Positions 1 through 19,251 of a DNA stretch of 22,580 nucleotides are shown here, one piece after another. The translations under genes and the position numbers were made by a program. Within the stretch, counting starts at the first letter, position 1, and the number at the start of each line of letters is the position of its first letter. Source of the DNA: a virus; IMG/VR virus record IMGVR_UViG_3300017917_000575, positions 1-22,580 of that record. One strand, 5' to 3'. Under the pieces are notes generated by a model. It had not been told where the DNA came from, did no database searches, and saw only the letters and a program-made list of their open reading frames with translations.

Positions 1-489
1 ACCAGTAACAATGTCGCTACTTGTGCTTGCAAATACAGTACCTGTACCTTGAACACCAAATGCTACGTTACATAGAACTTGCTTGCCATAGATGCCAGTG
101 TTACCACCAACTACACCGTATGAAGTACCGTTAGTTGCAGTGTTTGAACCATCTGGATTGCTGAAACCAGTATCAACAGTAGCAAAAGATGCTTTAACTG
201 TTTGACCAGTTGTATCTGTCAATGTAGCCATAACTCGTGGTTGAACACTTAGTTGTGTAGCTGATACATCAAACGTAGTATTTGATAAGATTGAGTTAAC
301 ATAGTATGTTGTACCTGCAACTAATCCACCAACTGTAGTAGCTACTACGAATGGCATACCTGGTAGAATGCCTACTGTAGGAGCGGTAGTTAAATTACCA
401 CCTGAAATTGTGACGATACTGCCTGTCGCTGCGGTATCAGTGATTGTTAAAATTGCTTGAGCTTTCGCTATTTTTAGAGGACGTCCCAT
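1..489 (-). CDS. Virion structural protein, C-terminus cut by window edge
   Basis: The frame is open for 163 codons from an ATG at 489 to the window edge with no stop, so the protein is partial. It begins MGRPLKIAKAQ and is rich in Thr, Gly, Val and Ser with very few charged residues, as in beta-rich phage fibre and decoration proteins. I recall the MGRPLKI start and a VVGG-type Gly-rich segment from structural proteins of T4-like marine phages, but this was not checked. A Shine-Dalgarno AAGGAA lies just before the ATG, and a late box GATAAATA lies about 90 bases upstream. It is divergent from the plus-strand gene at 631. The virion role is inferred from composition, promoter type and neighbours. 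Confidence 0.7.
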   Translation of the reverse strand, partial: MGRPLKIAKAQAILTITDTAATGSIVTISGGNLTTAPTVGILPGMPFVVATTVGGLVAGTTYYVNSILSNTTFDVSATQLSVQPRVMATLTDTTGQTVKASFATVDTGFSNPDGSNTATNGTSYGVVGGNTGIYGKQVLCNVAFGVQGTGTVFASTSSDIVTG

Positions 490-527
490 TTGATTTTCCT
501 TAATGTTAGACGCGGGTTCTAGCCGCT

Positions 528-545
528 ACGCAGTGGGTACTGCAT
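528..545 (-). promoter_or_regulatory. Leader stem-loop upstream of the partial structural gene
   Basis: Arms 528-534 and 539-545 can pair over 7 bp, including one G-T wobble, around a 4-base loop. If transcription starts about 6 bases after the late box at 573-580, this hairpin lies in a roughly 78-base leader of the gene starting at 489. It could affect mRNA stability, but this is only an inference from the pairing. Confidence 0.3.
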
Positions 546-572
546 AAACTCTCCCTATGAGAATGTATAATT

Positions 573-1968: not shown

Positions 1969-4947
1969 TTATAATCTTCCGACAGCGACTTCAATTACGC
2001 CCTCGACTCCGTCAAAGTTTTCTAATGCTTTGCCGATAACTGTTCCCATTTGTGGGTTGTTCCATGATCTTGCATAGCCATTGCCTGCACTAACCATCAT
2101 ATCACCTTTACGTACTGTGCCTCGTACTTTAACTGGCACACGCCCTTGTAGAGCTATTGGTGTAGCAATTCCCGGGCATTTTGCATTCATTGCATATGCC
2201 GGATCAGTTGATACAACACCTGCAACTCTTGTAGTTCCATCTTGTGCTAGTGTAACTTCTTTGTCACCGCCGAACTCTAATACTGTGCCTGGCTCATAGT
2301 GAGCATCAGCTTCGTAGTATTCTGCCAAGTCAGCGTATGTTGCATTCAAACGTGATCCTGCAGTCAATGTCCAGTTACCTGTCATTGTACCGGGTGTAGT
2401 ATTAGCACCTGTTGTTATGTTTGCAACTTGTATATTTGTTGTTGTAACAGTTCCTGCATTACTTGGGCCAACGTTGATGTTACCATCTCTGCCTACTGTA
2501 AACTGACTTGTACCACCAACTTGCAAGTCCATTAGATAGCTTCCGGAAGCGCTGTTAGTGTTTGTAATGTTCTGTCTAAAACCAGTAAATGCTATACTAG
2601 AGTTGTTCCATGTTTGTGTAAGCAAGACCGGTGTTGTCGCTACGATAGCACCGCTAGCTACGCTTAATCCTGTTAATGTACCTGTACTTGTGATATTTGG
2701 CTGTGCATTTGTAGTGACTGTACCTGCAGTAGTTGCCGCAGTAGCCGTTGCAACTGTTCCGCTAATGTTGCCGGCTGGTATGCCTGTCAAACCTGTTGCC
2801 GCACCGTAGAAAGCTGATGCGTATACGTTACCACCAACACCCACGCCACCTGCAACTTCTAATGCACCGGTTGCAGTGGATGTAGATGCAGTAGTAAATC
2901 TGACATTCATCTGTGTGTCATCGATGATAACTCTGTCAGATAATGTTTGTACCGTGTTGCCTGTACTTCCTGTAGTTGCTGTTTGAAAAGTGATCTTACC
3001 TACAGTAGCACTGCCTGTACTGGCACCTGCTTTAATTGTAATATCGCCACCAACGTGATTTTGACCGGCAGCTTCGCCGGCTGATACAGTCATGTCCCCG
3101 CCGGCACCATCATATGTTCCACCGGTGATGACGATGTTACCGCCCTTGGCTCCATATGTGTTAGCAGAAGCACCAGAATAAATTGCTACTGTACCGCCTT
3201 GACCTTGACCATACCCCTCACCTGCAGATAGTTCAGCAAGGCCGCCGGCGGCATTACCGCTAGCATTAGCAGTGCCTGCGTTTAATGATAATACGCCACC
3301 TGCACCAGTTCCATTTCCGTCACCGGCAAATATTTGAACTGCACCACCAGCACCGTTGACGTTCGTATTGCCTGCACCATAGATGTTTAATGTGTCACCT
3401 GCAGTTCCGTAAGTAGCAATGTCATTAGCTGTTACTGTACCAGAAACAGCTAATGATGTTAGTGTACCTAAACTAGTTACGTTTGGTTGAGCCGCTGTAG
3501 TCAATACACCTGTGAATAAAGTTGCGCTCAATGCACCTGTTGCGGCGTTGAATGATAAATTAGCATTTGCACCCTCAACAATATTACCAGTTAGTGCATT
3601 AGCTAACACTGGATAGAATGTACCTGTCGTTACAGTGTTGACATTAATAAAATCTGCAACGTTTGCATACGCTACATTTAAGTTTGCAACACGGGTTGTA
3701 CTAGTAACGGTTAATGGAGCAGTGCCGGTAGCAACGTTTGAAGTCAATGTACTTGCAGTGACTCCTCCTGCTGTATCTAAGTTAGCACCTCTAATGTTAC
3801 CAACTGCTGTAATCGTGGTGTTAGCATATAGAATCGTAGACGACAAGTTACCAGTAGCAATGTTGAAGCCTAAGTTTGCATTAGCTGCCATTGCTCTGTT
3901 AGCTGTAGTGCTACCGTTGACTAATACAGGGAAATAAGAACCTGTAGTCTGTGCTGTAACTACACCAAAGTCACTGACGTTAGAGTACGCAACGCTTAGG
4001 TTGCCTACACGTGTTGTACTTGTAACTGTTAAAGGCGCTGTACCTGTTGCAATGTTAGATGTTAATGTACTTGCAACGACAGAGTTGGCTGCATTCAAAT
4101 TACCTACGTTTGCATTACCAGATAGTGTTAGAATCTTACCAGAGAAGTCATATACTAAGTTTGCATCACCTGCAACAACACCGGAGTTGTTGTATTGAAT
4201 AGATGTGTTGGCGCCACCTGCTGATGTACCACCAGAACCACCTGATAATACAACTGCGGTCGCTATACCTGTATTAGCAGTAGCAGTTAATCCTGCACCG
4301 TTGGCAGTTGTAGATAACAAAGCATCAGTATATAACGTTACGTTACCCGAACCTGTCGTGCTACTATTTGATGTGAAGTTGCTGTTTAACTTGACATAGA
4401 AAGTCTTACCGTTAACTGGTACTGTGTTGCTACCTTGAACTCCAGAGATTGTGATTGATTGTCCGTTGACATACGGTGTAGTATTAGCAACGTTCATTGT
4501 AATGACGTTGGCTGCACCGTTTGTTAGACTTTTGATGTTAGTGTATAGCGTTCCCTTAGGTGTCCATGATAAGTTACCTAAACCGTCTGTCTCTAAGGTG
4601 TATCCAATAGCGCCCCCGCTGATACTGACATTGGATACATTACCCAAGTCAACTAGGCCACCGGCGGCACCACCACGGTTGACCCAGTTAGTGCCGTCAT
4701 AGGCTAAAACTTGTCCGTCTCCTACTGATACCGCAGAGATATCTAAGTTACCTACAGCGCCGTCAATCTGACTGAATACGATGTTGGAATAGGATGTGAG
4801 AACCTCAATGTTCTCGTTAGGGGAAACTTTACCAATAAACAGTCTTTTGGCATCTGTTGCCCAGCCAAATTCAGCTTCATCAAGCTGTGGTAGGTCAACA
4901 ATGTTTCCTGAACGTTGTTGGATTTTTGAAATTTGTACAATGGCCAT
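1969..4947 (-). CDS. Large tail-fibre-like virion protein
   Basis: 992 residues. The N-terminus (about 1-55) has MAIVQISKIQ, then DLPQLDEAEFGWA and KRLFIG, a pattern I recognise from T4-like marine phage fibre-type proteins, where it is thought to mark the virion-attachment end. Residues about 288-371 and 395-476 are a duplicated segment. The phrase AQPN-TS-GTLT recurs at about 487 and 748. Residues 533-652 form a Gly-rich domain of about seven 17-residue units. The segment at 686-710 (STATGALEVAGGVGVGGNVY) is a common fibre repeat. The C-terminal 120 residues start YADLAEYYEAD and look like the conserved, non-repetitive end that fibre proteins often use as a chaperone or self-cleavage domain; that reading is an inference. 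A late box lies 28 bases upstream. It probably contributes to host recognition. Confidence 0.85.
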   Translation of the reverse strand: MAIVQISKIQQRSGNIVDLPQLDEAEFGWATDAKRLFIGKVSPNENIEVLTSYSNIVFSQIDGAVGNLDISAVSVGDGQVLAYDGTNWVNRGGAAGGLVDLGNVSNVSISGGAIGYTLETDGLGNLSWTPKGTLYTNIKSLTNGAANVITMNVANTTPYVNGQSITISGVQGSNTVPVNGKTFYVKLNSNFTSNSSTTGSGNVTLYTDALLSTTANGAGLTATANTGIATAVVLSGGSGGTSAGGANTSIQYNNSGVVAGDANLVYDFSGKILTLSGNANVGNLNAANSVVASTLTSNIATGTAPLTVTSTTRVGNLSVAYSNVSDFGVVTAQTTGSYFPVLVNGSTTANRAMAANANLGFNIATGNLSSTILYANTTITAVGNIRGANLDTAGGVTASTLTSNVATGTAPLTVTSTTRVANLNVAYANVADFINVNTVTTGTFYPVLANALTGNIVEGANANLSFNAATGALSATLFTGVLTTAAQPNVTSLGTLTSLAVSGTVTANDIATYGTAGDTLNIYGAGNTNVNGAGGAVQIFAGDGNGTGAGGVLSLNAGTANASGNAAGGLAELSAGEGYGQGQGGTVAIYSGASANTYGAKGGNIVITGGTYDGAGGDMTVSAGEAAGQNHVGGDITIKAGASTGSATVGKITFQTATTGSTGNTVQTLSDRVIIDDTQMNVRFTTASTSTATGALEVAGGVGVGGNVYASAFYGAATGLTGIPAGNISGTVATATAATTAGTVTTNAQPNITSTGTLTGLSVASGAIVATTPVLLTQTWNNSSIAFTGFRQNITNTNSASGSYLMDLQVGGTSQFTVGRDGNINVGPSNAGTVTTTNIQVANITTGANTTPGTMTGNWTLTAGSRLNATYADLAEYYEADAHYEPGTVLEFGGDKEVTLAQDGTTRVAGVVSTDPAYAMNAKCPGIATPIALQGRVPVKVRGTVRKGDMMVSAGNGYARSWNNPQMGTVIGKALENFDGVEGVIEVAVGRL
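2992..3351 (-). repeat. Gly-rich beta repeat domain inside the fibre protein
   Basis: Encodes residues 533-652. About seven units follow the pattern G-G-x-[VLI]-x-[IL]-x-[AS]-G and then 6-9 variable residues, for example GGAVQIFAGDGNGTGA and GGTVAIYSGASANTYGA. The period of about 17 residues with alternating hydrophobics suggests a beta-helix or Gly-stacked fold. Copies differ at the DNA level, so the duplication is old or under protein-level selection. Confidence 0.6.
3520..4086 (-). repeat. Tandem duplication of about 80 residues in the fibre protein
   Basis: Copy 1 is residues 288-371 (about 3835-4086) and copy 2 is residues 395-476 (about 3520-3765). Both contain ASTLTSN-ATGTAPLTVTSTT, then R-[VG/VA]-N-L-[SN]-VAY-NV-DF, a T-T-G-[ST]-[YF]-[FY]-PVL segment, and a closing ANANL-FN-ATG-LS stretch. 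This kind of duplication commonly changes shaft length in phage fibres. Confidence 0.65.
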
Positions 4948-4974
4948 AAGCGTATCTTTACCGTTTGATACACT

Positions 4975-4982
4975 TATTTATC
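4975..4982 (-). promoter_or_regulatory. T4-type late promoter box GATAAATA
   Basis: The minus-strand octamer GATAAATA has a predicted start near 4969, giving a 22-base leader with GGTAAAGA before the ATG at 4947. It separates the fibre unit from the nuclease gene that ends at 4992. Confidence 0.6.
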
Positions 4983-4991
4983 ATTAAACCA

Positions 4992-5678
4992 TTATAGGAA
5001 CTTCATGTAGTATTGTTCAACTCGCTTGAACCAGCGATCAGACCACATATCGAATTCAGTACCTTCAATGATGAATTCTTGATATATGTTATCTGCGGTA
5101 CACATGAAAATAACACCTTTACGAATGTTAGTCCCGTGTACTTCATTGTGTGCATTAGCGTAGGCCGCTAGCTGTATGAAATAGTCGTCAATCCATTCAC
5201 GCTTTTTCAGCTTGTTAGATTGCTTGTGATCCATTATGGCTTCGCTGCCACTATGAACGCCAACCAGATCAGTTGTTCCGGCATATATCTTAGGAAAATA
5301 GAGAGGAACTTCTGTTCCCCAAAACTCAGTACAGTTGACAAGACCTTGTCTAATGATGCTGTCTGCCATTTTATGGCTTTGCTGGCTGTATGGATTGCTT
5401 CCGGGCTCACCTGTTTCTCCTGTCTTTACATAGTTTTCTAACCACTTGTGCATTCGTGTTCCACGACCTGCGGCTTCGGCTGTAATCTGTTGAGCCTTAA
5501 CGGGACCAACTCGTTTACGCCATTCGTTTAGAGCTTGTTTGGATTCTTCTGACTTCGTAGCATCGAGAATTGTAGTAACTGATGGTAGCTTCTCGCCGTC
5601 AGGGGTAGCATATCTTCGTCCTTCCGGAGTATCTATGCGATTGATTTTTACGTAGTTGAATTTGTTTGGATTGTACAT
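4992..5678 (-). CDS. PD-(D/E)XK superfamily nuclease
   Basis: 228 residues. Motifs appear in the RecB/Cas4-like order: GRGTRMHKWLE with His77, Glu123 in GTEVPL, Asp137 in AGTTDLVG, the D-x-K core Asp150-His-Lys152 in IMDHKQ, and Q169-L-A-A-Y173 in FIQLAAYA. These residues would bind metal and cleave DNA, so the protein is probably a phage exonuclease in recombination, repair or host DNA degradation. It has only two Cys, so the Cas4-type Fe-S cluster is absent. Its ATG shares one base with the TAA of the Fe-S carrier gene upstream (TAATG), so the two are translationally coupled. The exact substrate cannot be read from sequence. Confidence 0.85.
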   Translation of the reverse strand: MYNPNKFNYVKINRIDTPEGRRYATPDGEKLPSVTTILDATKSEESKQALNEWRKRVGPVKAQQITAEAAGRGTRMHKWLENYVKTGETGEPGSNPYSQQSHKMADSIIRQGLVNCTEFWGTEVPLYFPKIYAGTTDLVGVHSGSEAIMDHKQSNKLKKREWIDDYFIQLAAYANAHNEVHGTNIRKGVIFMCTADNIYQEFIIEGTEFDMWSDRWFKRVEQYYMKFL

Positions 5679-5998
5679 TATACTCTAAAGCTTTCTCCAC
5701 ACCCACAGCGATCACGTTCATTTGGATTGATGAATTCAAACCCTTCGTTCAGTCCATTTCTGACGTAATCAATAGTCATGTTCTGAACATAAGGACAACT
5801 CTTGGGGTCTATGTATATAGCACACCCATCACAATCTAATTTGAAATCCGTATCTGTTTGTGTATCGACAAACTCTAGTACGTATGCAAGCCCTGAGCAT
5901 CCGGTAGTTTTTACACCTACACGTATACCTAGGCCTTTTCCTCTTTTTTGTATTTGTTGTTTTATCTTCTTAATTGCCGATTCTGTAGCTGTAATCAT
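5678..5998 (-). CDS. A-type Fe-S cluster carrier (IscA/HesB-like)
   Basis: 106 residues, the usual length of the family. The three conserved cysteines are present: Cys34 in TTGCSGLAY, and Cys98 and Cys100 in RCGCGESF, a C-x63-C-x-C spacing typical of A-type carriers, which hand Fe-S clusters to apo-enzymes in the cytoplasm. Three extra Cys (56, 59, 68) lie between them. HesB-like genes are known in T4-like marine phages. It is coupled to the nuclease downstream and lies 5 bases after the gene ending at 6004. Its client is unknown; the radical SAM enzyme at 17092-18327 needs Fe-S clusters and is one candidate in this window, as is any host enzyme. Confidence 0.92.
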   Translation of the reverse strand: MITATESAIKKIKQQIQKRGKGLGIRVGVKTTGCSGLAYVLEFVDTQTDTDFKLDCDGCAIYIDPKSCPYVQNMTIDYVRNGLNEGFEFINPNERDRCGCGESFRV

Positions 5999-6330: not shown

Positions 6331-7059
6331 TTACCTCTTAGCACGACCTACAGCGCCGCCCATGCTTGGCTCTGGCTCTTCTTCGGGTGCAGGAGGAATG
6401 TCAGCATCAGCTTCTGCGTCTAGGTCAGCACCTAAGCCGGCATCCATACCAGCGTCCATGCCACCCATCTCATCATCCATACCAGTATCTAAGCCTGCGT
6501 CCATACCGGCGTCAGTAAAGCTGCCACCTTGACCAGTGATAGCATCACGTGCAGCCTTCATTTGAGCAAAGGCTTCTTTCAATGCACCACTTAGAGTATC
6601 TAGTTGACCAGATACTTGGTCGTTGTATGATTGTGCTTCGTTAACCCCGATCTCACTTTCGATACTATCGACAAGTGCAGGTAGTTCTTTAACTTGCATT
6701 TGACCAACATCTTCAAGCATCTTCTGAATGCTATCAACTAGGTCTTGTGCAGCTAGCACAACTTGAGATTTTTCGACTTCTTCGTTTTCAATAACGATAC
6801 GAGTTCTTGGTTGGGACTGTAGTTCGTTATAGTGTTGAACAAGTGCTTGCTCCATGAATACTAGTTTCATGTATGCAGGGCTAGTTTGGTTTTGGTGAAA
6901 GTCAGGTGCTTCCTTAGCTTCATTAGCTAGAGTGCGAACCTTCTTCAACATCTTTTGTGTTTCCATCTTTGTCATGGAAGCAGGGTTAAAAGACATTTTG
7001 TAGTTCTCAGCTAATGCTCTAGGGGCATAAACTTTTTTGTCAAAATCAGTTAGTTTCAT
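6331..7059 (-). CDS. Conserved helical phage protein with acidic tail
   Basis: 242 residues. Residues 27-175 are largely helical: a Lys-rich region, then VVLAAQDLVDSIQKMLEDVGQMQ, KELPALVDSIESEIG and an amphipathic stretch to about 172. Residues 183-230 form an acidic low-complexity tail built from repeats such as DAGMDAGLD, followed by PPAPEEEPEP and a basic end, GRAKR. I recall similar proteins in T4-like cyanophages and pelagiphages without a firm role. The helical body plus acidic tail would suit a scaffold, prohead-core or DNA-mimic protein, which is speculation. It is driven by the late box at 7085-7092, which supports a virion assembly role. Confidence 0.7.
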   Translation of the reverse strand: MKLTDFDKKVYAPRALAENYKMSFNPASMTKMETQKMLKKVRTLANEAKEAPDFHQNQTSPAYMKLVFMEQALVQHYNELQSQPRTRIVIENEEVEKSQVVLAAQDLVDSIQKMLEDVGQMQVKELPALVDSIESEIGVNEAQSYNDQVSGQLDTLSGALKEAFAQMKAARDAITGQGGSFTDAGMDAGLDTGMDDEMGGMDAGMDAGLGADLDAEADADIPPAPEEEPEPSMGGAVGRAKR

Positions 7060-8521: not shown

Positions 8522-9685
8522 TTATCTTCCGGCGAGATTTTGGCGACTGAAACCCATACGATCCACAAATTTCAAGCCATTCGCAACGAATCCTTCTTGA
8601 GTCTGGGTTCCGTCTTGTAGGTAACCCTTGACAGGACTAGATTCTGCGGCTTTGTTCAATTGAGTAACAATCGACATTTTCAATGCATAGATAGCAGCCC
8701 AGATTTCAAATGCACCTTTGACACCGTTCATATTGTCTTGTAAATGTTGCTCAATCTTAGCTTTCATGCTAGCTGTCATGGGACGACTATCGACATATTC
8801 CATGAAGCTAGGTAGTAGATTACCAAGATCACCTGCTACAATCTTCTTGTTAATGAAAGTCGTGAACAATCCATTGAATGTGTTACGTGCTTGAGGTGCA
8901 GTACTGAATAACTGATCTACTGCAGGACCCCACTTTTGAATGGCAGCGTTTGCATTCTTGGCTAGTTTTGCATCTAGTTTCAACTTAGGAGTGATGGGCA
9001 TCTTGGCAGGCACAATAGCAACATCGCTGTTGTTCTTTAGATTACCGATTCCACCGTCTAATGGAACTGCATCATCTGTTGTATATGCATCAGGGGACAT
9101 ATACTGGTGAACAACGATACCTGCTGTCTTTCCACCTAAGAATTGTCCAACTTCGCTGTCAGCATCAATTGTGTATGCAATACCGTTGGGGTTAGCTTTG
9201 AACTTATACATACCGTTTTGTTCTTGCAGCGGAGCACTGAATAACAAATCTCCCCAATAGTAACCTTTACCTGTATCAGATTTCTCTAGACCTGGCCAGA
9301 TGTTGGCAATCAATTGATGTAGGTTCTTACGATCTACACCGCGGGCAAGATCATACTTAACGAATTCTTCGGGACTATAGACTTCACGCCCTGATCCGTC
9401 TTTCTTGTTGAACATGTGCTTGTCCATGATAGAGAATCTACCGTCTACTCCACGACCAAAGATCAATGCAGGATAACCGTCCCACTTGATAGTTACTTTA
9501 GCTGGGTTGGCAACTGTATCTTGTGACGCTTGTACAGCACGTTGAGCACCTTGACTACCACCCAAGAATACTAAATCCTCAGGGTGATCTAAGTGACCTT
9601 TGTCCTCGAACATCAAACGCTCTTCGGGTTGTTCGACCTCATTAATGAAGTCTCTAAGTTTGCTTAATGATTCGGATAAGTTCAT
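8522..9685 (-). CDS. Nucleotidyltransferase (DNA/RNA ligase)-like phage protein
   Basis: 387 residues. KVTIKWDGYPALIFGR has K67-W-D-G, the motif I pattern K-x-D-G of covalent nucleotidyltransferases (ligases and capping enzymes), where the Lys is adenylated. WGDLLF at 144-149 sits where motif III would be, GKTAGIVVHQY follows at 185-195, and EGFVANGLKF at 364-373 resembles motif IV (E-G-x-V). A long helical insert (about 230-350) separates the last two. The start HLDHPEDLVF--GSQGA matches conserved proteins of T4-like cyanophages that I recall as unassigned. It may be an active adenylyltransferase, or a ligase fold reused for another job. The ATG overlaps the stop of the upstream gene (ATGA at 9682). 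Confidence 0.8.
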   Translation of the reverse strand: MNLSESLSKLRDFINEVEQPEERLMFEDKGHLDHPEDLVFLGGSQGAQRAVQASQDTVANPAKVTIKWDGYPALIFGRGVDGRFSIMDKHMFNKKDGSGREVYSPEEFVKYDLARGVDRKNLHQLIANIWPGLEKSDTGKGYYWGDLLFSAPLQEQNGMYKFKANPNGIAYTIDADSEVGQFLGGKTAGIVVHQYMSPDAYTTDDAVPLDGGIGNLKNNSDVAIVPAKMPITPKLKLDAKLAKNANAAIQKWGPAVDQLFSTAPQARNTFNGLFTTFINKKIVAGDLGNLLPSFMEYVDSRPMTASMKAKIEQHLQDNMNGVKGAFEIWAAIYALKMSIVTQLNKAAESSPVKGYLQDGTQTQEGFVANGLKFVDRMGFSRQNLAGR

Positions 9686-11046
9686 TTTGCCCCCATCTGA
9701 CTTTGAATTCGTTTTTCTAAGTTAGCGTATTCATCAGGGGTAGGCGCGCCTGGCTTTGCACCACTGATCGGACTTGCGGCAGCTGGCGCCGTCGCAGGAG
9801 GAGTGCTGGTTGGAGCTGCTGCCGGAGCAGGAGTTGCAGCTGGTGCTGCTGCAGGTGCCGCTGATAATTCCTTAATAAGCTTTGAATACAATGCAGGATC
9901 AAGTCCTTTTATTTTAGCTAGATTTGATCTTACACTGGCTACCATGCTATCAACTGATTGAGTTTTTGCAGGGGCAGCCTGTGAACTAGCTGTGGTGCCG
10001 GATGGACCACTTGCGCCTGCAGGTGTATTGGCCCCGGCTGGTGTATTGGCCCCGGCTGGTGTATTGGCGCCAGATGCTGAACCACCACCTGCTCCATAAC
10101 CCGGAGAACGTGACGCTGCATAAGCCGCTGTTGCTAACTTCTGCATAGCAGCCTGACCTTGATCTTGCTTATATGTATCCTCTACGCTTTTCATCAATTG
10201 TTGTGTATGCGGATCAGACATATCAGTACCGCGCATGTATGAAGGTACCCAACGTGCTAGGAACTGAGAAACAGACTCGGCTTCTGTTAAGATGCTTTCA
10301 AAAATGTTGTTTAATTTACGATACTTAGACTCAGCAATGATGTACTTACCGTTCTTTTTGTTTTCCTTAAGCAACGTTAGACCAACATCTTTCCATGTCA
10401 AGCTAACTGATTCTAACAGTTTATTAATCCAGTAAACGTTCCAAGCTTCTGAAACTTTCTGGCCGCCGGTCAATGATCTAATCATATTGCCACCAGCTTG
10501 ATTCTTTTGCAATACTGCCTTAGCAGTACCAAGAGCATTTTCCCATTCCGGGTAGCCCTTGCGATCAGCCATGAAGTTGATTAGTTCTTTAGTAAGAGCA
10601 ATTTTCTTGCTTCTTTCGGGTTCATTGTTCAACTCTTTTGCAATACGTTGAACGTAGTTATTGATGTTCTGATTAGTTTGGCGTTGTTGTGCTCCCGGAG
10701 CCGCAGCATTACCGGGTGCAACTTTAGCAGGACCAGCTTTGGCAGCAGGCGGAGCCGGGGGTGTCGCGGGCGCTTGAGCGGGTGATGCAGCTGGCGCGGC
10801 CTGTGCCGCCGAATTAGGGTCTACTCGACCACTCTCAATTTCAGCGTTTAAAGCCGCATATGCACGGCTTACAAAGTCGTTGACAAACTTTTCTTTGGAC
10901 ATCTTGTCAGCAACAGTTGCATTGCCCTCAGAGTTACCTGTAAGTCTATTGCCCAGCTGCTTTAGTGCAGAGGCTCCATAGTTACCAACCCAATCAGCAA
11001 GCTTCTCGTCTACTCGTTGCCTATTCTTAATGTCACTCAGTCTCAT
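9682..11046 (-). CDS. Ala/Pro-rich, probably virion-associated protein
   Basis: 454 residues. Three low-complexity Ala/Pro/Gly linkers (about 79-118, 317-358 and 396-435) separate helical blocks: 1-75, 125-312 (with WNVYWINKLLESVSLTWKD at 202-220) and 362-395, with a last short helix DEYANLEKRIQSQ. The middle linker holds three copies of PAGANT. The beaded layout suits an extended structural or scaffold-like protein, but no family is recognised. AAGGAA lies before the ATG, which overlaps the stop of the 82-residue gene by 14 bases; the stop overlaps the ligase-like gene. Two shorter frames nested within it on the same strand follow the repetitive codons and are not genes. Confidence 0.75.
   Translation of the reverse strand: MRLSDIKNRQRVDEKLADWVGNYGASALKQLGNRLTGNSEGNATVADKMSKEKFVNDFVSRAYAALNAEIESGRVDPNSAAQAAPAASPAQAPATPPAPPAAKAGPAKVAPGNAAAPGAQQRQTNQNINNYVQRIAKELNNEPERSKKIALTKELINFMADRKGYPEWENALGTAKAVLQKNQAGGNMIRSLTGGQKVSEAWNVYWINKLLESVSLTWKDVGLTLLKENKKNGKYIIAESKYRKLNNIFESILTEAESVSQFLARWVPSYMRGTDMSDPHTQQLMKSVEDTYKQDQGQAAMQKLATAAYAASRSPGYGAGGGSASGANTPAGANTPAGANTPAGASGPSGTTASSQAAPAKTQSVDSMVASVRSNLAKIKGLDPALYSKLIKELSAAPAAAPAATPAPAAAPTSTPPATAPAAASPISGAKPGAPTPDEYANLEKRIQSQMGAK
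10022..10075 (-). repeat. Three tandem 18-bp in-frame repeats
   Basis: The plus-strand unit GGTGTATTGGCCCCGGCT occurs twice exactly (10022-10039, 10040-10057), and a third copy (10058-10075) differs in four bases. Each unit encodes six residues of the PAGANT repeat in the linker of the 454-residue protein. The near-identity suggests recent slippage; changes in copy number would keep frame and alter only linker length. Confidence 0.85.
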
Positions 11047-11281
11047 GGTTTTTCCTTATACTTTTGGAAAATCTTGCCTGGTCACGTCCTTTGATAGCAC
11101 TTACTAGCTTCTTTTCCAGAAGTTCGGCAGTATCCTTATCATAGTGTTTGTTGATTAACTCTATTAGATTAATCGCACTAGTGATGATGTTATGGGCTCT
11201 GTTTTCGATGACATGTGACATGTCTCGGTCTTTGCCCATAGACTCCAATTCTTCCAACAGGGAACGTGTTTTCTTTTGCAT
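11033..11281 (-). CDS. Small conserved helical phage protein
   Basis: 82 residues, almost entirely helical and charged: MQKKTRSLLEELESMG, then HVIENRAHNIITSAINLIELINKHYD and a basic end, KGRDQARFSKSIRKNHETE. I recall the H-N-I-I-[TV]-S-A-I-N-L pattern from a small conserved protein of T4-like marine phages with no known role. AGGA sits at the 5' end of a 12-base leader behind the late box at 11299-11306. It overlaps the next gene by 14 bases and starts the unit 11281 to 8522. It may act as an adaptor or assembly factor; no motif decides this. Confidence 0.7.
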   Translation of the reverse strand: MQKKTRSLLEELESMGKDRDMSHVIENRAHNIITSAINLIELINKHYDKDTAELLEKKLVSAIKGRDQARFSKSIRKNHETE

Positions 11282-11298
11282 AAAATTTGTCCTAATTG

Positions 11299-11306
11299 TA
11301 TTTATG
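11299..11306 (-). promoter_or_regulatory. T4-type late promoter box CATAAATA
   Basis: The minus-strand CATAAATAC has a predicted start near 11293. The transcript would begin with AGGA, serving as Shine-Dalgarno for the ATG at 11281. It lies in the 39-base gap after the helicase gene. Confidence 0.6.
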
Positions 11307-11320
11307 CTGGATTCGGTTTA

Positions 11321-12784
11321 TTACTTCTTTAACGAATTCAGCAAGGCTTTTAGTTTTGCACCCTGTACGTCAGCTACGACCTTCTTTTCTAGGGGAGAAA
11401 AGTCGAATTTATGATTAGGATCAGGTTTAGATGAGGCGATTTCCCCGGTTGAACTATCTACAGATTGTACGGTAGACTGAGCTTTTAGCTTATCCATGAT
11501 GTTGTTAGGACTAGGCTGTGGGTTACTAGGACGATAAGTGTCGCCATCACCTTCAGGATTAGGATCCGTGATTCTCAGTGTCTCAACGTCAAATGCTAAT
11601 TCAATCTTTTGACCAACACCTGAGCTACTACGAGTTTTCATCAATTGTAATTGATACTGGCCACGCTCACGCATACTACGGCTAGTAAAAATGCCAAATA
11701 CGTTATCCGCAGTATTAATCTTTGAAATACCACCTGAAATATGACTGTGGTCGAACTCAATTTCTTCAACCGCTGATCTATTAAGCTGTGAAGCTGTGAC
11801 AAATAAAACATTCAATTCTTTCGCTAAGTTACGCAATTCTTCCGACACATACTTGTCTTTAACGAACAAGTCTGAGGGACTGACTTTTGCACTAACGGGC
11901 ATCAACAAGTCAAGGTAATCAACACATAAGAAATCTAGTTTTGTACCTGTCTGTATCTGTAGTTCTTTACAGTATGCCCGTAAGTCATTTACTGTACTCT
12001 GTGCAGGCATGTACTTAATTCTAAGCTTACCTGCTTTCTTCGCCATCATCTTGACCTTCATCTCAATGTTGTCGATAGATTTAAAAATTTCACGACTAGA
12101 GGTTTCAGTCATCATCGAGTCGATACGCATAGAACACAAACCCTCGCTCAATTCTAGTGTTACATAAACACCATTGAGTCCTGCTTGCGCCCAGTTAACC
12201 GCTAAGTTCTGCATGAACAAACTCTTACCTGAACCTGAGCCACCTGCAAAGATTTGCAATTCACCTCTATTGAAACCACCGTAGAGTTTCTGATCCATAC
12301 AGGGCCAACCTGTACTGTTCTGTCCATTGTTAGACTTCAGTGCCATCAATCGTGCTCTTGGATCAGCAAAGTAGTCTGTACCCATGTCTTTCTGTAGGCT
12401 GATCTGAACCGCGTCTTTGATTAGTTTCTCAACTGGATCAAAGTCTCCCTTTTCTAACAAGTCTGCACTCTTTAGAATAGCCCGTTCTAGTTCTTGTCTC
12501 TTAGTAAACTGTTCGAATTCTTCTAAGAACCAATCAGTATGACCATCGTTAAGTTCTGGGATATTTTCAATATCTGAACCAGTCACGGCTTTGATTTGTG
12601 TAGGCTCGGGCATGATGCCATACTTCTTTGAATGATCCACGATGAATTCTGCCACCGGCTTTAACTTCTTTTCAAAGTTGTCCGGATTCATGATGTTTGT
12701 TACCCGTGTATACAGTTCTGCATTCGTAACCATCATACGAAGGAACAGAACCTGCATATCTGTATTATACTCTTTGCTTGCCAA
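11321..12784 (-). CDS. gp41-like: Replicative DNA helicase, DnaB/gp41 family
   Basis: 487 residues. The N-terminal helical domain (1-135) is followed by a RecA-type core: Walker A GGSGSGKS at 181-188, a catalytic Glu region in YVTLELSEG (207-215), Walker B VDYLDLL at 288-294, Gln/Asn in TASQLNRS (330-337), and an arginine-finger region KTRSSSGVG near 383-391. It would unwind DNA at the fork as a hexamer with the primase. The C-terminal 80 residues are Pro/Ser rich and end in a short helix that may bind a partner. The start is a TTG at 12784 with a strong GAGG seven bases upstream, inside the last primase codons; the next Met (residue 10) has no Shine-Dalgarno. It overlaps the primase gene by 20 bases. 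Confidence 0.93.
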   Translation of the reverse strand: MASKEYNTDMQVLFLRMMVTNAELYTRVTNIMNPDNFEKKLKPVAEFIVDHSKKYGIMPEPTQIKAVTGSDIENIPELNDGHTDWFLEEFEQFTKRQELERAILKSADLLEKGDFDPVEKLIKDAVQISLQKDMGTDYFADPRARLMALKSNNGQNSTGWPCMDQKLYGGFNRGELQIFAGGSGSGKSLFMQNLAVNWAQAGLNGVYVTLELSEGLCSMRIDSMMTETSSREIFKSIDNIEMKVKMMAKKAGKLRIKYMPAQSTVNDLRAYCKELQIQTGTKLDFLCVDYLDLLMPVSAKVSPSDLFVKDKYVSEELRNLAKELNVLFVTASQLNRSAVEEIEFDHSHISGGISKINTADNVFGIFTSRSMRERGQYQLQLMKTRSSSGVGQKIELAFDVETLRITDPNPEGDGDTYRPSNPQPSPNNIMDKLKAQSTVQSVDSSTGEIASSKPDPNHKFDFSPLEKKVVADVQGAKLKALLNSLKK

Positions 12785-13742
12785 TCTTCTTCCTCTGCAT
12801 TTCTATTTTAACTTTACTGCTTGTAGCCGATTGAATGATGCTAATCAATGTCATCAACTTACCATACTTCACTACAGCATCATTAACGTCTTTAACGTCA
12901 ATATCCCAATCAGGGATACTTACACTATATCCTAACTCTAACGCTCTATCACAGGTTTCAAGACCTGTCTTATCACGATCAGGTACAAAAATGATCTTTC
13001 TATTCAACTGCGCTAATAGACTAGCCTGTTCATCGCTGATGGTATTGTGTGTCAACGCACAAGCATTCAAACTTAGTGCATCAAAGATACCTTCAACAAG
13101 AATACATACTTGCCATTCAGGCTTTTGAAAGTCGATACCGAACACATATCCCGGCTGTTGTTCGTTAATGTACTTGGGAATCTTGTTGTCTAAGAACCTA
13201 CTTGTATGACCTACAATCTTATTGTGATACGTGTAAGGTATTATAACACGATTACCCATTCTTCCAGACTCATCTGGGGTAATCATAAAGGGATAGTCAT
13301 TAGGATTTATCTCACGTTTACGTAGATAATCAACATATACTTTGTGTTGTGGATTGTTTACATCTATCAGTTCAGCTTCTTCCGGTAACAAGTGTTCTTT
13401 GAACTTTACCTTTGACTTCTGCTTTTTCACACTGACATAGCTTAATAGGTCTTTGTGTTGTAGACTTTCTAAGCTCCACTTTTGAATCTGTGTTTCATCG
13501 ACCCCACACCAAGATAAGAATTGTCTGGTGTTCTTTGATATGGTCTTTCCCAATGTGAAACCGCATTTGAACCCACAGTTGAAACAATGCATAGACCAAT
13601 TGTCACCGTCTATACGAATGCCACCGCGGCCTCTACGGTCAGCTTTGTGACCTCGGTGGTGACAACATATTGCATTGAAACTGTGCCAACCACTGTGGGA
13701 CAGCTTCTTTCTGCCCGGGGTGATGGTTAGGATATCAAACAT
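12765..13742 (-). CDS. gp61-like: DNA primase, DnaG/gp61 type
   Basis: 325 residues. The N-terminal zinc-binding domain has Cys26/Cys27 and His28/29 with Cys53-x2-Cys56 (HCFNCGF), which would read the primer template. The Toprim domain has the acidic Glu217 in ILVEGIFDAL and Asp255-x-Asp257 in FVPDRDKTG, the metal-binding residues of primer synthesis. It has no helicase domain, so it works with the separate helicase encoded directly downstream, as in T4. The start codon lies in the 3' arm of a 9-bp hairpin (13740-13764), and no clear Shine-Dalgarno is seen, so its translation may be held low or regulated. Confidence 0.92.
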   Translation of the reverse strand: MFDILTITPGRKKLSHSGWHSFNAICCHHRGHKADRRGRGGIRIDGDNWSMHCFNCGFKCGFTLGKTISKNTRQFLSWCGVDETQIQKWSLESLQHKDLLSYVSVKKQKSKVKFKEHLLPEEAELIDVNNPQHKVYVDYLRKREINPNDYPFMITPDESGRMGNRVIIPYTYHNKIVGHTSRFLDNKIPKYINEQQPGYVFGIDFQKPEWQVCILVEGIFDALSLNACALTHNTISDEQASLLAQLNRKIIFVPDRDKTGLETCDRALELGYSVSIPDWDIDVKDVNDAVVKYGKLMTLISIIQSATSSKVKIEMQRKKIGKQRV

Positions 13743-15044: not shown

Positions 15045-15609
15045 ATTCTTCAAGTAGGTTCATATGTACTACTACTAGATGTGCGTAGGCGCAGGCATGC
15101 GACCGCTTGAACGAGTACCCTGTATTATCTTTATCCCATACAGTTTTTGCAACTTCTTTCCAGGGCTTCCCAATCAAATGCTTTTTACCGGGACGAATGA
15201 TAGCCAAGAACATTGCTAGTCTGGGAATACTATTCACTGGTTCTGGCATGCTTCTTAACGTGCTATATTGGTTGTTCAAATGAATCAGCTTTTCTACAAA
15301 GTCTTTGTTCTTCAAATGATCCCAATTAGGATCACGCATAAGTTCAATTAAATGTCGTTCATCACGTACCTGATTATAAACGTGAACATTCAGCAAGTCT
15401 AGCTTCAAATATCCACGCTTTTCTGCCTCAGCATAATCTATAGAAGCCATATCGTTGACCGGATCATATGGTACATCCGTTACGTGAACACCAGTTGCAT
15501 GTTTACGCATCGGGTGTACTTTACGCATAGCCGCAGGAATATGATCTATCAAAGACAGAATCTTATCTCTGTCTCCAAAGTCAATGTCAATGTCACTGTT
15601 AAATTTCAT
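15028..15609 (-). CDS. Miniature DNA polymerase III alpha (DnaE)-like palm protein
   Basis: 193 residues. Five signatures of the C-family polymerase palm occur in the DnaE order: S-D6-I-D8-I-D10-F (DnaE P-D-F-D-x-D-F), RKHATGVHV at 35-43 (DnaE KHAGGVVI), YLKLD71LLNV (DnaE LVKFDFLGL), FLAIIRPGK at 134-142 (DnaE ALFRPGP), and YSFKRSHACAYA at 165-176 (DnaE YGFNKSHSAAYA). D6, D8 and D71 line up with the three catalytic aspartates of DnaE. PHP, fingers, clamp-binding and OB parts are missing: DnaE is about 1100 residues. It may be a reduced polymerase, a nucleotidyltransferase or a decoy of the host replisome; activity is unknown. It overlaps the cytidylyltransferase gene by 11 bases at the end of the operon. 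Confidence 0.75.
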   Translation of the reverse strand: MKFNSDIDIDFGDRDKILSLIDHIPAAMRKVHPMRKHATGVHVTDVPYDPVNDMASIDYAEAEKRGYLKLDLLNVHVYNQVRDERHLIELMRDPNWDHLKNKDFVEKLIHLNNQYSTLRSMPEPVNSIPRLAMFLAIIRPGKKHLIGKPWKEVAKTVWDKDNTGYSFKRSHACAYAHLVVVHMNLLEEFTVIV

Positions 15610-16087
15610 GTGGTTTAACTAATTCAGGGCTGTATTGTGGAGGCTCGTTATCAATCTTTTCAACATTCTTCAATGTTTCTAGCCTATGTGTTCTAGCACG
15701 TAGTTCGCTTGAACTATAATCATGGTGTCGTTTATGATAGTGTAACTCAATTCCATTGTTCATGCACCACTGTTTGCCCGTAAAGTCACGATTCAGATAC
15801 TCGTCACTCAAAAAGCGAATATGAATAGTCTGGGTCATGAGCATTTGCAATAAGTCGTATTCTGTCTCGTAGATTAGAATCTCGTCAACATACTTGCACG
15901 CCTGCAATTGAACATAACGTTCATATGCACTTTGAATGGGTTTGTTCTTGATGCCCGGCCGATCAATCGTAGGATCGATCTGTAATGCAACAATCAAGTA
16001 ATCGCATAATTGTTTTTCCATCTTGAGCATAGTTACATGCCCTGCATGTAGCAAATCAAAACTGCTACAATTGAATCCTATCTTCAT
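15599..16087 (-). CDS. Cytidylyltransferase-like nucleotidyltransferase
   Basis: 162 residues. The Rossmann-type start MKIGFNCSSFDLLHAGHVTML contains the H-x-G-H motif (14-17) of the cytidylyltransferase superfamily (glycerol-3-phosphate cytidylyltransferase, ADP-heptose synthase domain). The segment VALQIDPTIDRPG matches the strand and loop that follow, and HDYSSSELRAR near 120-132 stands where family members have the S-T-[ST] nucleotide-binding motif. It would join CTP or ATP to a phosphorylated sugar or alcohol. It is coupled by ATGA to the RmlC-like gene, which points to a shared role in activated-sugar or surface-polymer chemistry. The C-terminal 25 residues are polar and unlike the family core. 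The substrate cannot be told. Confidence 0.85.
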   Translation of the reverse strand: MKIGFNCSSFDLLHAGHVTMLKMEKQLCDYLIVALQIDPTIDRPGIKNKPIQSAYERYVQLQACKYVDEILIYETEYDLLQMLMTQTIHIRFLSDEYLNRDFTGKQWCMNNGIELHYHKRHHDYSSSELRARTHRLETLKNVEKIDNEPPQYSPELVKPHEI

Positions 16088-16545
16088 TTGTCTTTCTCCG
16101 AGAGTAATGGTTCAATGTCTAAGGGCCATCGAATTCCATATTCATTCCATTTGAAATTTTCTTCAAGTTCTTTGTTGTAGGGCTTATCAACAATGTATTG
16201 CACGATTGCCCCCTCAGTTAGAGCCATGTATCCATGTGCGTATTCCGGTGGTATCAACAATCCACATGTGTTGTCTAGTTCTATACCGAACCATCTTCCC
16301 GTCTCTGGTTCTAGTGCAACATCAAAGATTCTCCCATGTGCAGGCATAACCAACTTGTATTGATCTTGTCTATGCATGCCACGGATAACATACTGACTTG
16401 ATACCGCAGTATTCAATTGACGATATGTATCACGCATACCATCATAAGTCATCTTCCAAGTCTCACTGAAATATCCTCTATTATCAGTGTGCTGTGTTCT
16501 GTATACTACCCTCACACCGGGTAACATTTCTCCGTATGTTTTCAT
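16084..16545 (-). CDS. RmlC-like sugar epimerase (dTDP-4-dehydrorhamnose 3,5-epimerase family)
   Basis: 153 residues, shorter than the 180-185 usual for RmlC. The cupin signatures are in order: DNRGYFSETW at 21-30, VIRGMHRQ at 53-60 with the probable catalytic His58, YKLVMPAHGRIFDVALE at 63-79, and LLIPPEYAHGYMAL at 96-109. These residues bind a dTDP- or similar 4-keto sugar and epimerise it. A shorter C-terminus leaves only the core cupin, as in FdtA/QdtA-type and phage relatives, so a 3,4-ketoisomerase or single epimerase is also possible. It is coupled by ATGA on both sides (16084, 16542). It probably helps make a modified sugar for surface change or DNA decoration. Confidence 0.88.
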   Translation of the reverse strand: MKTYGEMLPGVRVVYRTQHTDNRGYFSETWKMTYDGMRDTYRQLNTAVSSQYVIRGMHRQDQYKLVMPAHGRIFDVALEPETGRWFGIELDNTCGLLIPPEYAHGYMALTEGAIVQYIVDKPYNKELEENFKWNEYGIRWPLDIEPLLSEKDK

Positions 16546-17102
16546 CGCGGTGTCGCCAATCCGGCTTTCATTAATTTCATGTATGCTTTTTGAACAACAA
16601 TGGCTTGTCGTTCGGCATCTTCTACCGCTTTGTGACTGGTACTGTGTCCACCGTCTTTGAGACTGACGCCTGCGATTTCATACAATGTTCGGGTGTCTCG
16701 CATTGTCCAGAAAGGCCAGGGGATGGGATTAGGCTTGTCACTAACTTGTCTCCAGGCATGCTCCATAACGACAAGGTCAAATGGAGCGCCATTACTCCAC
16801 ACAGCACGGCGATTCCAACAAAACTTATAAAGGGCCTCCATGCACTCACTAAATGGTTGACGTCCTTGGTCTCCCAATGCTTCTTCAAGTGCCGCAGGGC
16901 TCTGCGTGGACCACCATCGTAATGTATCCTCATTAATGCTCCTATTGTATATCTCTGTTTGATCCTCGACCGTAGGTTTAAGTTCTAGTCGTTCGACTAC
17001 CCCCTCACCGCGTGGATCAAATCTTACCGCACCGATAGTTAAGATAACACAATCAGGTCGTGTATCTAAACTCTCAATGTCAATCATAATATCATTTGCC
17101 AT
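16542..17102 (-). CDS. 3'-5' exonuclease, DEDDh (DexA-like)
   Basis: 186 residues. The DEDDh motifs are complete: Asp8 and Glu10 in IMIDIESLD, Asp109 in SNGAPFDLVV, and His157-x4-Asp162 in HKAVEDA. DTLRWWSTQSPAAL at 59-72 matches the E-W-W-x-x-Q-S-P segment of T4 DexA and its relatives, which degrade single-stranded DNA or RNA from the 3' end. It overlaps the radical SAM gene by 11 bases and the epimerase gene by 4. A separate 3'-5' exonuclease in the same operon as a PolIII-alpha-like protein recalls the bacterial alpha/epsilon pair, but DexA-like enzymes also act alone in nucleotide salvage. Confidence 0.9.
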   Translation of the reverse strand: MANDIMIDIESLDTRPDCVILTIGAVRFDPRGEGVVERLELKPTVEDQTEIYNRSINEDTLRWWSTQSPAALEEALGDQGRQPFSECMEALYKFCWNRRAVWSNGAPFDLVVMEHAWRQVSDKPNPIPWPFWTMRDTRTLYEIAGVSLKDGGHSTSHKAVEDAERQAIVVQKAYMKLMKAGLATPR

Positions 17103-18327
17103 AATTCTCTTTCAATTTTTGTAACTCTTCCCATACTTCAGGTATGAAATCTTCTATGTTTCGTTTTCTAAATTCGTCTGACCGACTTATAAACTTGATC
17201 GCAGTGTCGATTAAATCTTTGTTATCTTTGGTAGGCTCATTAGCCCATGCCTCGAATGTATTACATGCTTCTAATAGACTCGGATGAAGGTTAAGTCTTT
17301 TCAGTCGTTCTTTTACTGAGGTAAGTTTAGTTAAAGACTCTCTCCTGAATTCAGATGATAGTAGTGAACTATTAAAGTGCGGTGGATTGTTGACATAATT
17401 TAGAAAAATTGTCATTCTATCAGAGCCACGCTCACCTCTGTGTTGTTCTATCAATGATGCATAGTGATCTAATAACTCATGGAATCTAGAAAAGTTAAAG
17501 ATGCTTATCGTGCAACTTAACGTAATTCCAAATTTACCAGCGGCAGTAAGATCAAGATACTTTTTAAGATTAAATTCTATCTTATCAAACTTTGCAGGAT
17601 AACGCACATAGTCGTTTACTGCTCCTATCCCATCCATACTCAAACTTGCACCAACCGACTTGAAGTTCTCCCAAAGAAGAATCAATTCATCATCATAGAC
17701 TGTCAAGTTAGATACGTAATTTAAGGTTATGTTTTTGCTGGCACCAGTGCTGATTAATTTATCCAACAACACTCGATGTTCATCAGAGAACATAGGTTCT
17801 CCGCCTAATAGGTTTATGATTTCTACATTTTGGAACGTATCTAATAGTCGGTGAGTTGTTGCTTCTGCAATCGATGAAGCAGGAACTAACGCAGCAAGCT
17901 TAGTGGGGCTTGAGCTAATGTATTGATGTTCTTCTGCCCAGAAATCACTACAATATGGATTGCAGGTCATGCATTTGCTATTACACTTATTACCAAACGA
18001 TATGTCTAGATATTTTACAGCCTTTGGCAAAACTATCTCGCTCACAGGTGCATCCGGTATGTTTCGATTCCAAATCACTCGCATTGATTCAGATCCGATA
18101 CTCTCTGTGTTCTTACAAAGACCGCATGCTTCTGGCCACTCTCCGGCTATTAGTGATTTGCGTACTTCCCGCAAATTTTTAGAATTGATTCTCTGAATGA
18201 AGCTGAGTTCTTTGTCATTAATAGCCCTGAACTTATTAGGAATAATGTTACAGCATGGACGCAGGGTACCCATAGTATCCATGGACACGCTACCAAAAGC
18301 TAATCCACAGTATATAGGCTCACTCAT
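17092..18327 (-). CDS. Radical SAM enzyme with N-terminal twitch domain
   Basis: 411 residues. The N-terminal region carries Cys7, Cys25-Cys26 (TLRPCC) and Cys68-x2-Cys71 (EACGLCKN), as in twitch/SPASM auxiliary Fe-S domains, here placed before the core. The core has YLDISFGNKCNSKCMTC, a C-x3-C-x2-C motif (Cys115, 119, 122) that binds the 4Fe-4S cluster and S-adenosylmethionine, and LLGGEPMF at 173-180. The enzyme would generate a 5'-deoxyadenosyl radical to modify a peptide, sugar or nucleotide. Such N-terminal-twitch radical SAM genes occur in T4-like marine phages. It overlaps the 2OG oxygenase gene by 8 bases, with GGGAAAG before the ATG. The substrate is unknown. Confidence 0.92.
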   Translation of the reverse strand: MSEPIYCGLAFGSVSMDTMGTLRPCCNIIPNKFRAINDKELSFIQRINSKNLREVRKSLIAGEWPEACGLCKNTESIGSESMRVIWNRNIPDAPVSEIVLPKAVKYLDISFGNKCNSKCMTCNPYCSDFWAEEHQYISSSPTKLAALVPASSIAEATTHRLLDTFQNVEIINLLGGEPMFSDEHRVLLDKLISTGASKNITLNYVSNLTVYDDELILLWENFKSVGASLSMDGIGAVNDYVRYPAKFDKIEFNLKKYLDLTAAGKFGITLSCTISIFNFSRFHELLDHYASLIEQHRGERGSDRMTIFLNYVNNPPHFNSSLLSSEFRRESLTKLTSVKERLKRLNLHPSLLEACNTFEAWANEPTKDNKDLIDTAIKFISRSDEFRKRNIEDFIPEVWEELQKLKENYGK

Positions 18328-19009: not shown

Positions 19010-19251
19010 AGTTCATACATAGTTATCAGTTTACTAGACCATATCGTAATATCTACTGCTTTGTCAGAACCCGAGAAGTCCCAACCGTCACCCCTGTTGC
19101 CGAAGTTTCTGCGGCACCACTTAATGACTTCCATTGGGTTACCTTTGCATCGAAAGATAACTTTGCCAGAGTCACGTGCGTTTACGCATTCGTACTCAAC
19201 AATTTCTATATAAGGTGACATTGTATCAAACGGTGAGTTTGTGATTGCCAT
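18997..19251 (-). CDS. Small array protein, degenerate LRW-family member
   Basis: 84 residues. PMEVIKWCRRNFGNRGDGW (39-57) matches the W-C-x4-F-G segment of other members of the array (for example DWCYHTFGPSGF and AWCSQHFGP), and TIWSSKLITMYELWQN at the end is a weak form of the F-x-x-E-K-D-x3-F-x-L-R-W tail. It is the last member before the enzyme genes. The ATG has GGGAG at 8 bases and lies 26 bases inside the upstream gene, so this junction does not use the LRW-coded Shine-Dalgarno. Function unknown. Confidence 0.7.
   Translation of the reverse strand: MAITNSPFDTMSPYIEIVEYECVNARDSGKVIFRCKGNPMEVIKWCRRNFGNRGDGWDFSGSDKAVDITIWSSKLITMYELWQN

What the first reader, a model, noticed from the sequence alone, without database searches (positions are those of the whole stretch)
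8522..9685. Ligase-type motifs in an unassigned, widely conserved-looking phage protein
K67-W-D-G, W-G-D-L-L-F and a very C-terminal E-G-F-V follow the order of motifs I, III and IV of nucleotidyltransferases, but about 215 residues separate the last two and motif V is unclear. It lies among virion-type genes rather than replication genes. It could be an RNA or DNA ligase, a capping-like enzyme, or a protein AMPylating or structural derivative.
Basis: partly seen in the sequence, partly recalled or inferred. Interest (0 to 1): 0.62.

Follow-up and report, generated by a model that had tools for sequence, protein, structure and literature searches.

The report
Ligase-like phage enzyme, probably head-packaged
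The gene encodes a virus enzyme of unknown job whose active-site pattern matches the family of enzymes that seal RNA or DNA ends, and in many related viruses it carries a short leading tag like the one phage T4 uses to load proteins into its head, so it may be delivered into the bacterium with the viral DNA.

Summary
The 387-aa protein is a member of Pfam DUF6267 (function unknown). In 160 of 160 relatives collected without using these motifs, K67, D69, G70, D146, E364, G365, K372, D375 and R376 are unchanged. AlphaFold models are confident (pLDDT 90 and 93). With a natural short form the nine best PDB matches are all DNA/RNA ligase or capping-enzyme entries, though each is individually weak (E 0.08 or worse, TM about 0.2). 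The 215-residue gap is a helical insertion. I file it as a divergent family with a covalent-nucleotidyltransferase-type active site, not as a DNA ligase, capping enzyme or Rnl1: no OB domain, no profile match. The unexpected part is the N-terminus. 35 of 83 representative relatives start with the residues that target T4 internal proteins into the head (MKTYQEFIAE-like); the window's clade carries a cleavage-site-like [LIV]-x-E just before the domain. In phage S-CREM2, proteins with this tag, including a partner-type adenylyltransferase, were found in virions by others. Packaging of DUF6267 itself is inferred; no tagged member has been seen in a virion.

The parts
8522..9685 (-). DUF6267 protein, 387 aa, ligase-type nucleotidyltransferase candidate
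   Evidence: Pfam PF19782 E 4.6e-35; phrog_455; AlphaFold pLDDT 89.9
9605..9685 (-). N-terminal extension, residues 1-27: helix 3-18, disordered linker 19-28; cleavage-like sites I-N-E (14-16) and M-F-E (25-27) before K-G-H-L-D-H
   Evidence: inferred propeptide, cleavage not shown
9575..9595 (-). H31-x-x-H-x-E-D37, invariant family motif of unknown role
9467..9487 (-). Motif I, K67-W-D-G-x-P-A73; K67 is the candidate nucleophile
9419..9421 (-). K89, invariant; position of motif Ia by analogy with Rnl1 (inferred)
9239..9256 (-). Motif III, W144-G-D146-L-L-F149, on a beta strand
9098..9121 (-). Candidate motif IIIa, residues 189-196 with invariant H193, on a beta strand
   Evidence: assignment inferred from order
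8645..8971 (-). Helical insertion, residues 239-347, with invariant N279 and K336; accounts for the long gap
8585..8596 (-). Motif IV, E364-G-F-V367
8558..8575 (-).
9682..11046 (-). Upstream neighbour (454 aa, Ala/Pro-rich), overlaps the DUF6267 start by 4 nt; function unknown
11033..11281 (-). Small virion structural protein
   Evidence: phrog_11854 E 2.1e-18
6331..7059 (-). Virion structural protein (head and packaging category)
   Evidence: phrog_14154 E 1.3e-12

Best explanation
DUF6267 is a divergent covalent nucleotidyltransferase with a ligase/capping-type active site. SHOWN: invariant motifs I, III, IV and V; a confident model with these motifs on strands in the expected order; a helical insertion between IIIa and IV; no room for a C-terminal OB domain. 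INFERRED: K67 attacks the alpha-phosphate of a nucleotide (ATP most likely, NAD+ possible) to form a lysine-NMP, which is passed to an acceptor, most likely an RNA end. INFERRED: in tagged members, including the window clade, the protein is drawn into the prohead core by its N-terminal peptide, trimmed by the T4-gp21-type protease at [LIV]-x-E next to the domain, and enters the host with the DNA, as T4 Alt and the internal proteins do. In most relatives outside the window clade it is encoded beside an NMN-adenylyltransferase-like protein that is often tagged too.
For: Conservation of nine catalytic-type residues in 160/160 loci found without those motifs. Models at pLDDT 89.9 and 93.0. Foldseek with the short form: ranks 1-9 and about 20 of the first 25 PDB matches are DNA ligase, RNA ligase, tRNA ligase or capping-enzyme entries. 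Tag: 35/83 representatives match M-x(1-5)-[FYL]-x-x-[FYH]-[ILV]-x-E directly before the domain against 8/3431 internal methionines; these are residues 4, 7, 8 and 10 of the T4 IPIII targeting sequence, shown by mutation to direct targeting (4, 7) and processing (8, 10) (PMC9026906). Window clade: 48/48 distinct extensions have aliphatic-x-E before D/A/G-K-G-H, against the T4 gp21 motif L/I-X-E. Peptidase_S77 (gp21) genes in six large contigs of this clade. In S-CREM2, 4 of 5 ORFs with the tag are in the measured virion proteome (Fisher p=0.013).
Against: No individual fold match is significant (E 0.08 or worse, TM about 0.2) and profile comparison with Rnl1 aligns only motifs IV-V (E 0.04, probability 1%). 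No tagged DUF6267 has been detected in a virion in any held source; the S-CREM2 and S-SCSM1 members are untagged and not reported there. The window protein does not match the strict T4 tag pattern, and its site has M, not L/I, at the key position (I-N-E at 14-16 does fit). The authors of the proteome warn that enzymes may be carry-over.
Confidence: 0.5

Rival explanations
1. A ligase-type enzyme that acts inside the infected cell during replication (RNA or DNA end repair next to helicase and primase) and is not packaged; the N-terminal extension is an ordinary variable tail.
For: Operon position downstream of helicase and primase; 27 of 83 representatives start at or close to the domain, mostly cyanophage-type forms; untagged forms not reported in two virion proteomes.
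Against: The tag is far commoner than chance and sits directly before the domain; tagged proteins of S-CREM2 are in virions; the closest named neighbours in the window are virion proteins.
Confidence: 0.35
2. A structural or regulatory head protein in which the nucleotidyltransferase-like motifs arose by convergence or are a dead remnant.
For: No significant match to any solved nucleotidyltransferase by sequence or fold.
Against: Catalytic-type residues are the most conserved positions while the rest diverges to 20-25% identity; order and secondary structure fit; the best structural matches come from several separate families of one superfamily.
Confidence: 0.07
3. A protein- or small-molecule-modifying nucleotidyltransferase (AMPylation or nucleotide-cofactor transfer) rather than a nucleic-acid ligase, working with the NMN-adenylyltransferase-like partner.
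For: Partner gene close downstream in 92 of 115 testable loci outside the window clade, fused in S-PM2; partner's best named matches are NMN adenylyltransferases, below cut-off; no OB or known nucleic-acid-binding domain.
Against: The partner is absent near the gene in 49 of 49 testable window-clade loci, so it is not needed for the core function; no direct evidence for a protein or small-molecule acceptor.
Confidence: 0.2

Closest known systems
Pfam PF19782 (DUF6267) / phrog_455
   Same: Full-length match; a member by definition
   Different: The window clade is a long-branched subgroup (branch length 3.9) without the usual partner gene
T4 RNA ligase 1 (Rnl1, gp63)
   Same: Motif order K-x-D-G ... 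E-G-[YF]-V-A ... K in a T4-like phage
   Different: No Pfam or significant profile match; helical insertion between IIIa and IV; ends 11 residues after motif V, so the Rnl1 C-terminal region is missing
DNA ligase III/IV, Naegleria RNA ligase, fungal tRNA ligase, mRNA capping enzymes
   Same: Best structural matches of the short form
   Different: Matches not significant; no OB domain or motif VI in DUF6267
T4 internal proteins IPII/IPIII and Alt
   Same: Tag residues 4, 7, 8, 10 in 35/83 representatives; L/I-x-E-type processing site; gp21-type protease present in the clade
   Different: A 40-kDa enzyme rather than a small basic protein; the window's own tag is longer and not of the strict form
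Virion-associated cytidylyltransferase/NMNAT of cyanophages S-CREM2 and S-SCSM1 (PMC10665884, PMC9602691)
   Same: Same type of protein sits next to or fused with DUF6267 in other phages; carries the tag; detected in virions
   Different: A different, HIGH-type nucleotidyltransferase fold; in those two phages DUF6267 is a short untagged form elsewhere in the genome

Membership tests
Pfam DUF6267 | Profile match above the curated cut-off (27 bits) | tested here: met
   122.1 bits, residues 31-384
Covalent nucleotidyltransferase superfamily | Motif I K-x-[DNH]-G with invariant lysine | tested here: met
   160/160 loci
Covalent nucleotidyltransferase superfamily | Motif III acidic residue, motif IV E-G, motif V K, in this order | tested here: met
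   D146, E364-G365, K372 in 160/160
Covalent nucleotidyltransferase superfamily | Nucleotidyltransferase fold | tested here: inconclusive
   Matches dominated by the superfamily but not significant
Covalent nucleotidyltransferase superfamily | Covalent lysine-NMP intermediate | not testable with these tools
   needs a labelled-nucleotide assay
DNA ligase / mRNA capping enzyme | C-terminal OB domain with motif VI after motif V | tested here: not met
   protein ends at 387, 11 residues after motif V; model shows a single helix there
T4 Rnl1 family | Sequence-profile membership | tested here: not met
   no Pfam hit other than DUF6267; profile comparison not significant
T4 Rnl2 family | Sequence-profile membership | tested here: not met
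   comparison with T4 Rnl2 not significant, single-sequence template only
T4-type internal head (ejected) proteins | N-terminal targeting residues at 4, 7, 8, 10 | tested here: inconclusive
   met in 35/83 family representatives; the window clade uses a longer extension that does not match the strict pattern
T4-type internal head (ejected) proteins | Prohead-protease site L/I-x-E before the mature domain | tested here: inconclusive
   39/48 window-clade extensions have L/I, 8 V, 1 (the window) M; the window also has I-N-E at 14-16
T4-type internal head (ejected) proteins | Presence in the virion | not testable with these tools
   no proteome of a phage with a tagged DUF6267 in the held sources; untagged forms not listed in two proteomes

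The most novel reading that the evidence does not exclude
A ligase-type nucleotidyltransferase packaged in the phage head and injected with the DNA, which in most relatives works with a co-packaged NMN-adenylyltransferase: the ligase domain uses NAD+ (or repairs RNA cut by host defences) at the first moment of infection while the partner regenerates NAD+ from NMN and ATP.
Probability: 0.1. Interest if true: 0.85.

Novelty: new variant of a known kind. Interest (0 to 1): 0.6.

Why it matters
A protein found in hundreds of T4-like phage records has had no function. A ligase-type active site with an unusual helical insertion, together with a T4-like head-targeting tag that also marks enzymes found in cyanophage virions, would turn an anonymous family into a testable injected enzyme and give a simple sequence rule for finding other proteins that environmental phages deliver into their hosts.

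Tried and rejected
Direct PDB sequence search with the protein and with two profiles: nothing, or coiled-coil noise. Profile comparison with Rnl1 and Rnl2: only motifs IV-V of Rnl1, not significant. Strict T4 tag pattern in the window clade's 230-kb relative: no hit at any gene start, so for the window the packaging claim rests on the cleavage-like site alone. T4-type late promoter TATAAATA in the window: none. The window's own CTP_transf_like gene (15599-16087) as the partner: thought unlikely, since it sits by a dTDP-sugar epimerase gene and no GRFNPPxxGH-type gene was found near DUF6267 in 49 of 49 testable clade loci. Bacterial-genome matches are mostly MAG contigs; phage contigs binned with bacteria are likely, but this was not tested one by one, and I did not read them as cellular genes. 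A Pnkp-Rnl1-like RNA repair cassette (P-loop kinase and NT5C nucleotidase near DUF6267 in HTVC008M and Melnitz): kept only as a lead.

Full report
WHAT IS THERE. The region 8522-9685 encodes a 387-residue protein on the minus strand. It is a full-length member of Pfam DUF6267 and matches phrog_455, both without function. No paper in the held library mentions DUF6267. Relatives occur in over 400 of 50,697 phage records, mostly T4-like cyanophages, with a few Pelagibacter, Methylophilales, Stenotrophomonas, Vibrio and Pseudoalteromonas phages, and in hundreds of viral contigs.

THE MOTIFS. Across 84 representatives below 70% identity these residues are invariant or nearly so, together with H31, H34, E36, K89, N167, H193, N279 and K336. 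To avoid circularity I used only loci found with other peptides: K67, D69, G70, D146, E364, G365, K372, D375 and R376 are unchanged in 160 of 160. In T4 Rnl1 the corresponding order is K99-E-D-G, F-E-F-V-A (from 158), E227-G-Y-V-A and F-K-I-K (from 239).

THE FOLD. AlphaFold2 gives pLDDT 89.9 and pTM 0.85 for the window protein. Motif I lies at the end of strand 65-67, motif III on strand 141-149, candidate IIIa on 188-196, IV on 365-368 and V on 371-373; residues 239-347 are helices inserted between IIIa and IV, which explains the long gap. A natural short form (298 aa) models at pLDDT 93.0. Foldseek against the PDB finds no significant match for either. With the window model the first match is a fungal tRNA ligase adenylyltransferase domain, followed by CorA helical noise. 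With the short form, ranks 1 to 9 and about 20 of the first 25 are DNA ligase, RNA ligase, tRNA ligase or capping-enzyme entries. I read this as superfamily-level support, not proof: E-values are 0.08 or worse and TM-scores about 0.2, and the homologous entries are not independent of one another. Sequence-profile comparison adds only a weak motif IV-V alignment to Rnl1. The chain ends 11 residues after motif V, so there is no OB domain, and it is not a DNA ligase or capping enzyme in the strict sense.

THE N-TERMINUS. The Pfam match begins at residue 31. In 35 of 83 representatives the preceding residues match M-x(1-5)-[FYL]-x-x-[FYH]-[ILV]-x-E, for example MKTFTQYLTED, MHTFKQFLAEN, MISFKTFIAEA. 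Twenty-seven have a start codon at or within about seven residues of the domain (one of these, L219, still begins MEFITEA, and one, L068, is a window-clade member with the clade's long extension), and 21 have other extensions, 12 of them with [LIVM]-x-E. T4 IPII and IPIII begin MKTYQEFIAEA; in IPIII residues 4 and 7 direct targeting while 8 and 10 direct processing (PMC9026906), and T4 gp21 cuts after L/I-X-E. The pattern occurs at 8 of 3431 internal methionines in four genomes, and in T4 it picks IPII, IPIII and one other ORF of 257. In the window clade 48 distinct extensions end in an aliphatic residue (L 30, I 9, V 8, M 1), any residue, E (48 of 48), then D/A/G and K-G-H-L-D-H; these are related sequences, so the count is not 48 independent events. 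The window has M-F-E there and also I-N-E at 14-16. The model shows a helix 3-18 and a disordered linker 19-28. A gp21-type Peptidase_S77 gene is present in six large contigs of this clade. Cleavable-type extensions lie on both sides of the family tree and change at least four times.

A CHECK AGAINST EXPERIMENT. The S-CREM2 virion proteome (PMC10665884) served as an outside test. Five ORFs of that genome match the pattern; four are in the proteome: SAM hydrolase, APH/ChoK-like kinase, cytidylyltransferase and ORF13, which includes all three proteins the authors list as regulatory (Fisher p=0.013). The pattern was fixed in its final form after I had seen some of these N-termini, so the p-value is indicative only. 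The S-SCSM1 NMNAT, also in virions (PMC9602691), starts MKSFLQFLKEA. The DUF6267 genes of these two phages are untagged short forms located elsewhere and are not reported in the virions. The S-CREM2 authors caution that such enzymes could be carry-over, and the passages I read do not mention a targeting sequence; the only paper in the library holding both 'capsid targeting' and 'cyanophage' is a T4 review.

NEIGHBOURS. Outside the window clade, 92 of 115 loci with enough flank have a GRFNPPxxGH-type nucleotidyltransferase close by on the same strand, 37 of them with a tag by a slightly looser pattern; in S-PM2 it is fused to DUF6267. Its best named matches are NMN adenylyltransferases, all below cut-off. 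In the window clade none of 49 testable loci has it. The window gene overlaps its upstream neighbour by 4 nt, and the order helicase, small virion protein, next gene, DUF6267 is kept in a 230-kb relative.

VERDICT. About 0.85 that this is a covalent-nucleotidyltransferase-type enzyme, about 0.6 that tagged members are packaged, about 0.5 for the combined statement as applied to the window protein. The acceptor is unknown; RNA end joining is the default guess from the nearest relatives by motif. The tag finding and its agreement with published virion data are, as far as the held sources show, not described for these phages.

Noticed in passing
window 487-564, minus strand: freshwater-2 RNA motif (RF02980), 62 bits against a gathering score of 49.9.
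   Followed up: no
window 15599-16545, minus strand: CTP_transf_like gene overlapping a dTDP-4-dehydrorhamnose 3,5-epimerase-like gene: a small sugar-nucleotide cluster.
   Followed up: no
window 5678-5998, minus strand: A-type iron-sulphur cluster biosynthesis protein in a phage (Fe-S_biosyn, E 4.5e-20), kept in the 230-kb relative.
   Followed up: no
window 17092-18327, minus strand: Radical SAM domain protein (phrog_14086).
   Followed up: no
window 18997-22416, minus strand: Run of small ORFs, several ending in similar L-R-W/R-Y/R-F-type residues, that look like a diverged tandem family.
   Followed up: no
L283:82-1131 and L283:12203-13288 (Melnitz); S-CREM2 3837-5081 and 10310-12861: Other proteins with the T4-like head-targeting tag: a RimK-like ATP-grasp enzyme and the gene upstream of DUF6267 in Melnitz; SAM hydrolase, APH/ChoK-like kinase and ORF13 in S-CREM2, the last three found in virions.
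   Followed up: partly
L282:9718-10380, L282:14284-14874, L283:19277-19789: P-loop kinase (Zeta_toxin/AAA_33) and NT5C-type nucleotidase genes near DUF6267 in pelagic phages; a possible end-processing set.
   Followed up: no
L085:9212-9583, L283:14525-14917: Small very basic proteins next to DUF6267, one starting MLSFKQFVSEV, similar in character to T4 internal proteins.
   Followed up: no
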